A stretch of DNA of 64,000 nucleotides from Bradyrhizobium sp. 1(2017). Lineage in GTDB: Bacteria > Pseudomonadota > Alphaproteobacteria > Rhizobiales > Xanthobacteraceae. Shown here in pieces: positions 17,776-61,598 of this stretch. The DNA is taken from assembly GCF_011602485.2 (NCBI RefSeq), contig NZ_CP050022.2, forward strand, positions 868,001-932,000, written 5' to 3'. The number at the start of each line of letters is the position of its first letter. Position 1 is the stretch's first letter. The notes under the pieces were generated by a model. That model was not told the DNA's origin. It worked only from the letters and a program-made list of their open reading frames with translations, and did not search any database. A program made the position numbers and the translations under genes.

Positions 17776-17793
17776 GCGCCATACACGCTCGCT

Positions 17794-17893
17794 GTCATTG
17801 CCCGCGAAAGCGGGCAATCCAGTATTCCATCGACGGTGCGTGGACACGGAAGCCGCGGCGCACTGGATGCCCCGGTCAAAGCCGGGGCATGAC
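17794..17893. repeat. Palindromic intergenic repeat (family G)
   Basis: An element of 100 bp bounded by GTCAT and ATGAC. The left end folds into a perfect 9-bp stem capped by GAAA (ATTGCCCGC and GCGGGCAAT); the right end has a second hairpin around CCCCGG and CCGGGG. It sits in the convergent gap before modC and may act as a bidirectional transcription stop. Confidence 0.65.
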
Positions 17894-20795: not shown

Positions 20796-21113
20796 GTCGA
20801 ATCTCATCGTTGGCCACGCGAACGGCGCGAGGCTTGCGGTCAGGCTCGTTGAAGACAAGGGATGCACATCCCGGAATGCCGCGGGCTTACGGCACGGCGG
20901 CAGATGGATATTAGCGCAGTCGCGTGGTGCGAACCAACCACCTAGTTGTCATCCCGGGGCGCGCGCAGCGCGAGCCCGGGATCCATAGCCACGGGGAGGA
21001 ATTTGGCGAAGATTCGGAGTTACCACTTCGCCTACCAACCACTCCCTGTGGTTATGGGTCCCGGGCTCGCTTCGCGCCCCGGGACGACAGCGGTGGGAGA
21101 GGCGCCACGCACG
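20796..21113. other. Intergenic region dominated by a palindromic element
   Basis: 318 bp between two minus-strand genes. The element at 20948-21088 fills almost half; the rest presumably carries the promoter of the gene ending at 20292. No coding sequence was recognised. Confidence 0.6.
20948..21088. repeat. Hairpin-tipped inverted-repeat element, family R, copy 1
   Basis: A 141-bp element. Both ends, read inward, are versions of one tip: GTCRTCCCGGG, a hairpin, then CCCGGGAYCCATARCCAC. Between the tips lies a core that starts GGGAGGAATTTGGCGAAGAT and is shared with the copies near 49.7, 58.2 and 61.5 kb. The tip hairpin here is longer than in the other copies (CCCGGGGCG with CGAGCCCGGG). 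Confidence 0.75.
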
Positions 21114-49590: not shown

Positions 49591-49620
49591 GTAGCCGTGA
49601 GCGCGAACCACACACTCAGT

Positions 49621-49758
49621 GTCGTCCCGGCGCAGGCCGGGACCCATACCGCGTGATCTATCGAGGGAATGCTGTGCGGGTACCGGCGAAGAAGAATAAC
49701 GACGAGTCTTCGCCAAACTTCTCCCGTGGTTATGGGTTCCGGCCTTCGCCGGCACGAC
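49621..49758. repeat. Hairpin-tipped inverted-repeat element, family R, copy 2
   Basis: A 138-bp element with tips beginning GTCGTCCCGGC at 49621 and ending GCCGGCACGAC at 49758. Its core is inverted relative to copies 1 and 4: the complement reads GGGAGAAGTTTGGCGAAGAC. Its left end (ACCCATACCGCGTGATCTAT) matches the right end of the copy at 61460-61595. It lies between the pckA terminator and the thioesterase gene. Confidence 0.75.
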
Positions 49759-49772
49759 ATTGGGGTGGGGCC

Positions 49773-53766: not shown

Positions 53767-53820
53767 GGGGGGTGATGCTATGAAATTCGGGGATGCGTTG
53801 CGGCATGCTCTCACCACATC

Positions 53821-53855
53821 GTCGTCCTGGCGAAAGCCAGGACCCATTACCCCGG
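53821..53855. repeat. Left inverted arm of the GIY-YIG unit
   Basis: 35 bp starting GTCGTCCTGGCGAAAGCCAG. The hairpin is CCTGGC-GAAA-GCCAGG. It encodes the last residues and the TAA of the nuclease gene on the minus strand. Confidence 0.85.
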
Positions 53856-54158
53856 CTGTCGGATGAGGCCCGATCGGTCGTTCCAGTCAGGATTTTCCTG
53901 CTCGATCAGCTTGATCTTCCAGTCGCGCTTCCAGAACTTCAGTTGCTTCTCGCGTGCAATGGCTTCTTGCGGTGTCGCAAAGGCTTCGACGTGAACGAGG
54001 CGAAAGATCTTGTATCGGTGGACGAACTTGGACCCGCGACCTGAACGGTGCAATTCAAGTCGTGCGCGGACGTCGTTAGTGACGCCAATATAGATCGCGC
54101 CGTGATGGCGGATCGCGAGGATGTAGACGTAGTATGTGGCTGCGCTCGTGTGGCTCAA
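53847..54158 (-). CDS. GIY-YIG nuclease-domain protein
   Basis: A 103-residue protein made almost entirely of a GIY-YIG (URI-type) domain: YYVYILAIRHHGAIYIGVTN, the Arg and His of RARLELHRSG, and the Glu of EAIAREKQLKFWKRDWK. Small proteins of this kind are probable nucleases, though few have been tested. No ATG precedes the domain closely; TTG at 54158 is proposed, while the frame is open to 54305 through repeat-derived sequence. The stop TAA is inside the left inverted repeat. Bacterial relatives are numerous in Bradyrhizobium-type genomes. Confidence 0.72.
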   Translation of the reverse strand: MSHTSAATYYVYILAIRHHGAIYIGVTNDVRARLELHRSGRGSKFVHRYKIFRLVHVEAFATPQEAIAREKQLKFWKRDWKIKLIEQENPDWNDRSGLIRQPG

Positions 54159-54177
54159 GCCCGCAAAGCAACGCTGA

Positions 54178-54212
54178 CCGGGGTAATGGGTCCTGGCCTT
54201 CGCCAGGACGAC
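54178..54212. repeat. Right inverted arm of the GIY-YIG unit
   Basis: 35 bp, the reverse complement of 53821-53855 with one mismatch located in the hairpin loop. It lies 20 bp before the proposed TTG start of the nuclease gene. Confidence 0.85.
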
Positions 54213-54340
54213 GCTCTCAACAACCAGCCCTACAGCATCAGAACAAATTAAGAACACTTTAGCAAGTCTTTGATATATCATTGTGATTCGGCACTGCGCC
54301 GACACAACATCTAGCGCCCGTCAGACTTTGCGAGGACTAC

Positions 54341-58072: not shown

Positions 58073-58163
58073 GGGTGAACCGGTGCGGGATATGACACGA
58101 TTCTAATATGCGGCGCGCTGCGGGGCCATCGCGCAATTGCTCGGAGGACAATTGAGCTTCAGT

Positions 58164-58284
58164 GTCGTCCCGGCGAAGGCCGGGACCCATAACCACGAAA
58201 TCGAGTTTGGAGAAGACTGCCAACTACGGTCTTGTGCCAAAACTTCTTCCTGGGGTTATGGGTCCCGGCCTTCGCCGGGACGAC
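58164..58284. repeat. Hairpin-tipped inverted-repeat element, family R, copy 3
   Basis: A 121-bp element. Both tips are CCCGGC-GAAG-GCCGGG hairpins (the right one in complement) next to GACCCATAACC. The core includes GAGTTTGGAGAAGACTGCCA, shared with the other copies. It lies just downstream of polA and upstream of the LysE gene. Confidence 0.78.
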
Positions 58285-58302
58285 GCCGTGTGTGTGTAGC
58301 GT

Positions 58303-61383: not shown

Positions 61384-61459
61384 GGCCGCAATGTATGAAT
61401 TTTTGCGGGCTTTGACAGCCTTAGAAGAGGGATTTTTGGGCGGATTCCCACACCTCATC

Positions 61460-61595
61460 GTCGTCCCGGCGAACGCCGGGAGCCATAACCACAGGGAGGA
61501 GTTTGGCGAGGTTTGGCAGCTAAGAAGCCGTGGTACGACGACCGCAATCTATCGATTGATCACGCGGTATGGGTCCCGGCGTTCGCCGGGACGAC
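61460..61595. repeat. Hairpin-tipped inverted-repeat element, family R, copy 4
   Basis: A 136-bp element with CCCGGC-GAAC-GCCGGG tips at both ends and a core beginning GGGAGGAGTTTGGCGAGGTT. Its right end is the complement of the left end of copy 2. It lies between polA and the acyltransferase gene. Confidence 0.78.
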
Positions 61596-61598
61596 GAC

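What the first reader, a model, noticed from the sequence alone, without database searches (positions are those of the whole stretch)
53821..54212. GIY-YIG nuclease gene packaged between inverted hairpin repeats: candidate autonomous mobile unit
A 103-residue GIY-YIG gene is framed by 35-bp inverted arms (34/35 identical) that contain its stop codon, so gene and repeat are one unit. The tips (CCTGGC-GAAR-GCCAGG) are a variant, with paired stem changes, of the tips of four non-coding elements in this window. Flanking near-repeats GCTCTCACCAC and GCTCTCAACAAC may be a target duplication. This suggests a nuclease-based element with non-coding satellites, comparable in logic to RAYT/REP systems but with a different enzyme. 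What is seen: arms, hairpins, gene. The mobility is inference.
Basis: partly seen in the sequence, partly recalled or inferred. Interest (0 to 1): 0.78.

Follow-up and report, generated by a model that had tools for sequence, protein, structure and literature searches.

The report
Nuclease gene framed by REP hairpins
A tiny DNA-cutting enzyme gene sits between two copies of a short hairpin repeat that is scattered through the genome, and the same pairing recurs in many groups of bacteria, so this enzyme family is the likely missing partner of a repeat class that was said to have none.

Summary
A GIY-YIG gene (53847-54158, minus) lies between 36-bp inverted arms (97%), with its stop codon in one arm. 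Each arm is a CGTC-tagged REP hairpin, a class reported in 2013 to "apparently lack a dedicated transposase" (PMC3733652).

The pairing is general. In a sample drawn without regard to repeats, strict CGTC/TGTC hairpins lie within 300 bp of 44 of 89 family genes; 16 of 86 are framed by outward pairs, against 0 of 180 neighbouring open frames. Pooled with two further sets: 62 of 185 against 0 of 225. Gene and repeats co-occur across 144 genomes (28 of 46 against 8 of 98, p = 4e-11). Loop class follows the protein tree (6 changes, 18.3 shuffled). A second GIY-YIG subfamily has another palindrome and no CGTC hairpins in 40 loci.

Relatives show sites with the unit, with hairpin dimers only, with an internally deleted gene, and with neither; some keep arm remnants, pointing to loss. 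No target duplication was found.

Best reading: a nuclease/hairpin pair analogous to RAYT/REP. Recalled, unread here: a 2025 report of Ssn, GIY-YIG single-strand nucleases of Neisseria. Movement is inferred.

The parts
53820..53855 (+). left arm: CGTC tag + 8-bp stem GTCCTGGC, loop GAAA, then CCATTACCCCGG; contains the gene's stop codon
53847..54158 (-). GIY-YIG nuclease gene, 103 aa from a TTG start (the start codon of the orthologues is not conserved here)
54178..54213 (-). right arm: CGTC tag + stem GTCCTGGC, loop GAAG, inverted; tag outward
58163..58285 (.). non-coding dimer of the same hairpin class (stem GTCCCGGC), tags outward, 123 bp
49620..49760 (+). non-coding hairpin (stem GTCCCGGC, loop GCAG) with a degenerate partner; right end approximate
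61440..61596 (-). non-coding hairpin (stem GTCCCGGC, loop GAAC) with a second tip; low end approximate
20950..21089 (-). non-coding element with a longer hairpin tip (GTCCCGGG...); low end approximate
17793..17818 (+). hairpin of a related class, TGTC ATTGCCCGC-GAAA-GCGGGCAAT CCA

Best explanation
The unit is a dimer of CGTC-tagged REP hairpins, tags outward, whose spacer is the gene of a small GIY-YIG nuclease that recognises this hairpin class. SHOWN: gene family and hairpin class are associated specifically and across phyla; left and right stems match within a locus; hairpin class follows protein phylogeny; one and the same site can be without the unit, carry hairpins only, or carry hairpins plus gene. 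INFERRED: the enzyme binds the hairpin in single-stranded DNA (lagging strand, or cruciform) and cuts at or near the tag; hairpins and hairpin dimers are multiplied and kept by this cutting and its repair, as proposed for RAYT/REP; the gene rides within a dimer, stays at low copy, and can be lost by recombination between its hairpins, leaving a non-coding dimer behind.
For: Own genome: 3 of 5 small GIY-YIG genes have strict outward CGTC/TGTC hairpins on both sides, each with its own stem; a fourth (L002) has longer outward hairpins that the strict rule misses; the fifth, of another subfamily, has no such hairpin. Alphaproteobacterial sample (144 genomes; 89 family loci): 92 hairpins within 300 bp against 38 in 451 kb of flank; any hairpin at 44 of 89; gene-matched control 43 of 86 with a hairpin and 16 of 86 framed, against 6 and 0 of 180 neighbouring open frames of 120 aa or more; 81 hairpins in 31.7 kb of adjacent intergenic DNA against 7 in 49.4 kb. 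Pooled with the phylum and named sets: 128 and 62 of 185 against 7 and 0 of 225. Phylum sample 19 of 27. Sets found with alignment A5, whose rows were partly chosen from hairpin-bearing loci, so their rates are not neutral: 72 of 80 named loci, 22 of 28 loci from the order of G507. Double dissociation: family A has CGTC near 66 of 120 and CCTGAG..CGAAGG near 0 of 120; subfamily B has 0 of 20 and 11 of 20, and 0 and 11 on 20 further B loci. Co-occurrence: 28 of 46 gene-bearing against 8 of 98 gene-less genomes have 2 or more hairpins of two patterns, Fisher 4e-11 (other cut-offs 1, 3, 5, 10: p from 1e-8 to 8e-5); reversed patterns 0. Loop class on the protein tree: 6 changes against 18.3, 0 of 500 shuffles. 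Left/right stems agree within 1 mismatch in 52 of 66 loci, shuffled mean 18.7, maximum 26. Same-site states.
Against: Movement and cutting were not observed. No target duplication. About half of the family loci in the neutral sample have no strict hairpin nearby (45 of 89). 16 of 46 gene-bearing genomes have no hit of the two strict patterns, and 8 of 98 gene-less genomes have two or more; the co-occurrence is weak among small genomes (p = 0.08). Arm remnants at some sites without the unit point to loss. The window copy's start codon is not conserved, so it may be decaying. Two of 80 named family-A loci also have the other palindrome nearby.
Confidence: 0.68

Rival explanations
1. The nuclease is a site-specific single-strand nuclease (Ssn-like, recalled) that uses the hairpins as genomic targets to tune uptake or recombination of DNA; the hairpins are spread by something else and the gene is not mobile.
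For: Specific pairing and clade-specific hairpins. A Neisseria-like genome (3583 copies of the uptake word) has a degraded family member with two matches to the recalled dRS3 consensus on one side. Arm remnants at sites without the unit fit loss without movement. A recalled 2025 paper on Ssn in Neisseria points this way; it was not found in the library.
Against: It does not by itself explain why the gene is so often framed by its own hairpins or why hairpin dimers stand alone at the same site.
Confidence: 0.35
2. The gene is a passenger cassette: it enters and leaves existing hairpin dimers by homologous recombination between hairpins, and the hairpins act mainly as recombination handles.
For: At the L001 site and at dnaN-recF the same position carries a dimer with or without the gene.
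Against: Hairpin class follows enzyme clade, gene and hairpins co-occur across genomes, and the reciprocal exclusion with subfamily B would be unexplained.
Confidence: 0.15
3. Autonomous DNA transposon with terminal inverted repeats and non-coding MITEs.
For: Inverted ends, an internally deleted derivative in G145 (L191), sites without the unit.
Against: No target duplication; no near-identical gene copies in the genome; arm remnants at several sites without the unit; ends are hairpins tagged like REPs; GIY-YIG is not a known transposase fold (recalled).
Confidence: 0.08
4. Chance or insertion bias: hairpins gather in intergenic DNA next to any small dispensable gene.
For: REPs lie mostly between genes (PMC3733652 abstract).
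Against: In the neutral sample the density in adjacent intergenic DNA is 81 per 31.7 kb against 7 per 49.4 kb at neighbouring open frames, and 0 of 180 of those are framed; 40 subfamily-B genes of similar size in the same class have no CGTC hairpin nearby.
Confidence: 0.02

Closest known systems
REP/REPIN with RAYT (TnpA_REP), GTAG-tagged (passages of PMC3733652; details partly recalled)
   Same: Tagged hairpins, dimers, enzyme gene framed by its own hairpins, enzyme at low copy and hairpins at high copy
   Different: Enzyme is GIY-YIG (PF01541), not an HUH tyrosine transposase; tag is CGTC/TGTC, tail CCA
CGTC-tagged REPs (Di Nocera 2013, PMC3733652; outline with abstract, sections 6 and 11 and found passages read)
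   Same: Same tag, 8-9 bp stem, 4-5 nt loop, CCA tail, dimers; Bradyrhizobium listed
   Different: In the parts read, no dedicated enzyme was found and tyrosine and other transposases were looked at; here a GIY-YIG gene is the partner
Ssn, site-specific single-strand GIY-YIG nucleases and the NTS repeats of Neisseria (recalled, Nat Commun 2025; not held, not read)
   Same: Small GIY-YIG enzyme and a repeat present in hundreds of copies; a degraded relative in a Neisseria-like genome has dRS3-type repeats beside it
GIY-YIG homing endonucleases (I-TevI type, recalled)
   Same: Catalytic domain
   Different: About 93-103 aa with the GIY-YIG domain alone, many different sites, hairpins at both ends
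UPF0213 proteins of solved structure (1zg2, 1ywl)
   Same: Nearest solved sequences, 5e-10 and 1e-5 over the GIY-YIG domain
   Different: Match ends at residue 77-81; the family's C-terminal NP.W.DL part is not covered

Membership tests
CGTC-tagged REP | CGTC or TGTC tag, 8-9 bp stem, 4-5 nt loop, CCA tail | tested here: met
   definition read
CGTC-tagged REP | many copies, often as dimers | tested here: met
   54 and 122 copies by two patterns; six dimers of 121-132 bp printed
RAYT (TnpA_REP) | HUH Y1 tyrosine transposase domain | tested here: not met
   only PF01541 for the window protein
RAYT (TnpA_REP) | GTAG tag on framing hairpins | tested here: not met
   tag is CGTC
Ssn nucleases (recalled) | GIY-YIG enzyme paired with a genomic repeat | tested here: met
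Ssn nucleases (recalled) | sequence-specific cutting of single-stranded DNA | not testable with these tools
   needs purified enzyme
Ssn nucleases (recalled) | close sequence relation to the Neisseria enzyme | tested here: inconclusive
   one Neisseria-like genome has a degraded match, 84 bits; the reference protein was not available
Insertion sequence / MITE | target-site duplication | tested here: not met
   5 of 66, shuffled mean 1.7, maximum 6
Insertion sequence / MITE | sites never occupied by the element in relatives | tested here: inconclusive
   sites without the unit exist, but some keep arm remnants
GIY-YIG homing endonuclease | extra DNA-binding domain | tested here: not met
   98 aa given to Pfam, GIY-YIG domain only
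GIY-YIG homing endonuclease | host group I intron | not tested
   Rfam was not searched

The most novel reading that the evidence does not exclude
GIY-YIG nucleases are a second, phylum-spanning class of hairpin-propagating enzymes beside the RAYTs: at least two subfamilies, each tied to its own palindrome (CGTC-REP; CCTGAG..CGAAGG), multiply and keep these repeats by cutting single-stranded hairpins, which supplies the enzyme that CGTC REPs were said to lack.
Probability: 0.43. Interest if true: 0.9.

Novelty: new variant of a known kind. Interest (0 to 1): 0.75.

Why it matters
CGTC REPs occur in all orders of alphaproteobacteria and include the dRS3 repeats of Neisseria; in 2013 they were left without an enzyme. 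A specific, testable partner turns that open question into a biochemical one. The double dissociation with a second GIY-YIG subfamily suggests a wider rule: each kind of small GIY-YIG nuclease has its own hairpin.

Tried and rejected
Target duplication: rejected. Classic transposon: disfavoured. Simple intergenic bias: disfavoured by the gene-matched controls. The first control set (other GIY-YIG genes) proved not to be neutral: 7 of 21 had inverted arms of 14 bp or more, which led to the second palindrome. L005 was left out of the table, so its flanks were not tested for that palindrome. The tree used 106 rows, after leaving out rows with stops, under 78 aa or identical; 51 had no label; the label is the parity of the hairpin's span, a stand-in for 4-nt against 5-nt loops. 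At the L001 site 4 of 29 fetched loci could not be placed (L274, L278, L281, L283). Rfam, PHROGs and PADLOC were not used. Confidence was lowered slightly (0.70 to 0.68; novel case 0.45 to 0.43) after a recount found the arm remnants and the choice of rows in A5.

Literature, all in this library: GIY-YIG with 'repetitive extragenic palindromic' 0 papers; six mixed terms, 57 papers, 20 listed, which gave PMC3733652; with dRS3 0; with REPIN 5 and with RAYT 10, none whose listed title or start of abstract concerned such repeats; Ssn not found. Of 6 papers on CGTC/GTAG REPs, PMC12306157 and PMC6006769 were searched for terms and cite the 2013 paper only in their reference lists; PMC5896051, PMC8266576 and PMC4524435 were seen as listings only. 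Strings of the second palindrome matched 28 papers, and none of the 15 listed has a title about repeats. Absence from print is claimed only for these searches.

Full report
OBSERVATION. The window (own genome G000, 7.86 Mb, window = 868001-932000) holds a GIY-YIG gene at 53847-54158 (minus) between arms 53820-53855 and 54178-54213, 36 nt, 97% complementary. The stop codon lies in the left arm. The 103-aa reading starts at a TTG; the start of the orthologues printed is not conserved here. The positions shared with its three closer paralogues include the GIY-YIG motif residues (which residues are catalytic is recalled).

WHAT THE ARMS ARE. Each arm starts with CGTC, then an 8-bp stem, a 4-nt loop, the stem again and CC. 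This is the CGTC-1 REP outline of Di Nocera et al. 2013 (PMC3733652; [quoted passage not shown] The other elements of the window are mostly the same class with a paired stem change. The genome holds 54 matches to one pattern and 122 to another; six tag-outward dimers of 121-132 bp with related interiors were printed.

OWN GENOME. PF01541 gives 6 matches, one of them in a 688-aa frame that I take for UvrC (recalled). Of the 5 small ones, 3 have strict outward hairpins on both sides, each with a different stem (L001, L003, L004 = the window); L002 has longer outward hairpins that the strict rule misses; L005 belongs to another subfamily and has no CGTC hairpin.

GENERALITY. A search of 144 alphaproteobacterial genomes with the four own proteins gave full-length family members and, well separated in score, other GIY-YIG genes. 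All 89 family loci were examined (29 tool loci, 58 fetched, 2 broken copies). 17 had outward hairpins on both sides and 15 on one; 92 hairpins lay within 300 bp against 38 in 451 kb of flank; 21 other GIY-YIG loci had none near (20 of the others listed were fetched, plus L005). Any hairpin: 44 of 89. The fairest control compares the gene with other open frames of 120 aa or more in the same loci (predicted by script, not annotated): 43 of 86 with a hairpin against 6 of 180, p = 3e-19; 16 of 86 framed outward against 0 of 180. Pooled with two later sets it is 128 and 62 of 185 against 7 and 0 of 225. A phylum sample of 397 genomes gave 19 of the 27 new top loci, 11 framed. The order of G507 gave 22 of 28 top loci, 10 framed. 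The last two used alignment A5, whose rows I had partly picked from hairpin-bearing loci, so their rates are not neutral; sets may also overlap in organisms. A test without any tag rule agrees: inverted arms of 14 bp or more flank 31 of 89 and 18 of 27 family genes against 0 of 225 shifted positions.

SPECIFICITY. The same test showed arms at 7 of 21 'control' GIY-YIG genes. Many carry a different palindrome, CCTGAG..CGAAGG. Counted directly: family A (n = 120) has CGTC near 66 and the other palindrome near 0; subfamily B (n = 20, L005 left out) has 0 and 11. On 20 further B loci, from 38 matches listed, the result was again 0 and 11, with no such palindrome in 37 kb of flank. Two of the 80 named A loci do have a B palindrome nearby. 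Within family A, loop class needs 6 changes on the protein tree against 18.3 when shuffled, 0 of 500 as low (few columns, 57 of 103 inner branches open). Left and right stems agree within one mismatch in 52 of 66 framed loci, shuffled mean 18.7.

CO-OCCURRENCE. In the 144 genomes, 28 of 46 with the gene and 8 of 98 without have two or more strict hairpins (Fisher 4e-11, the strongest of five cut-offs tried; the others give 1e-8 to 8e-5); reversed patterns gave none. Exceptions: 16 gene-bearing genomes without a pattern hit; G066, G078, G079 and G089 with 11-34 hairpins and no gene found; G027 with 6 hairpins and only a broken remnant.

SAME-SITE STATES. Window site, 117 genomes searched: 15 loci inspected, 8 with the unit, 4 with only 43-80 bp between the flanks, 3 with other DNA of about 290 bp. 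dnaN-recF site of the L003 copy: 15 inspected with the unit (own copy included) and 1 with 1672 bp not read (L176); of 13 chosen because the alignment was broken there, 7 have a hairpin dimer or its remnant without the gene, one (G145, L191) keeps both hairpins with most of the gene deleted, 5 have other content. L001 site: 17 others with the unit (L257-L273), L277 and L279 with the gene in altered surroundings, 6 with a dimer only (L275, L276, L280, L282, L284, L285), 4 not placed; of 8 further sites fetched because the flanks lay close, 5 are short and without hairpins (L286, L287, L289, L290, L295; 44-80 bp), 3 keep a hairpin or part of one. Against a pure insertion story, four sites without the unit keep 11-16 bases of an arm (L183, L189, L193, L296). 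The states show gain and/or loss and do not give direction.

MECHANISM. Shown: specific, clade-matched pairing of gene and hairpin, and presence or absence of the unit. Inferred: cutting of the hairpin at the tag as single strand, and spread of the hairpins by it. The parallel with RAYT/REP is one of logic, not descent: the enzyme has no HUH domain and the tag differs. No target duplication was seen, and the paralogues are only 41-63% identical to the window copy, so the gene is not a freely multiplying transposon.

RELATION TO KNOWN WORK. From memory, a 2025 paper describes Ssn, GIY-YIG nucleases cutting single-stranded DNA at repeats called NTS in Neisseria. It is not in the library and I did not read it. 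A Neisseria-like genome (3583 copies of the uptake word) has a degraded family member; on one side lie two matches to the recalled dRS3 consensus, on the other a degenerate pair seen by eye, while the strict CGTC rule finds none there. dRS3 is CGTC-1. So this family and Ssn are probably one kind, and I call it a new variant of a known kind, not categorically new.

Noticed in passing
L097-L116, L383-L407 (other genomes): A second small GIY-YIG subfamily (GWSRAKKEAL type) is flanked by palindromes CCTGAG..CGAAGG in 11 of 20 and 11 of 20 loci, and by CGTC hairpins in none of these 40.
   Followed up: partly
L003:1456-1821 (own genome, dnaN-recF): A family member with CTTGA-loop hairpins sits between genes I take for dnaN and recF; the same gap in relatives carries the unit, a hairpin dimer alone, or other DNA.
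   Followed up: yes
L002:1350-1850: A fourth family member is flanked by much longer outward hairpins (TCCCGG...CCGGGACCCA) that the strict rule misses; a longer-stem class may exist.
   Followed up: no
G136:C1 about 199916-201026 and 284836-287316: Hairpins repeat in one orientation at steps of 409 bp and of about 325-435 bp, like a tandem array, in a gene-bearing genome.
   Followed up: no
L436 (G1002, Neisseria-like), about 2540-2896: Degraded family member with dRS3-type repeats beside it, between genes I take by eye for purK and trpE.
   Followed up: partly
G066, G078, G079, G089: Genomes with 11-34 CGTC hairpins but no family gene found: orphan repeats or an enzyme too diverged to see.
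   Followed up: no
L183, L189, L193, L296: Sites without the unit that keep 11-16 bases of one arm, as if the unit had been lost there.
   Followed up: partly
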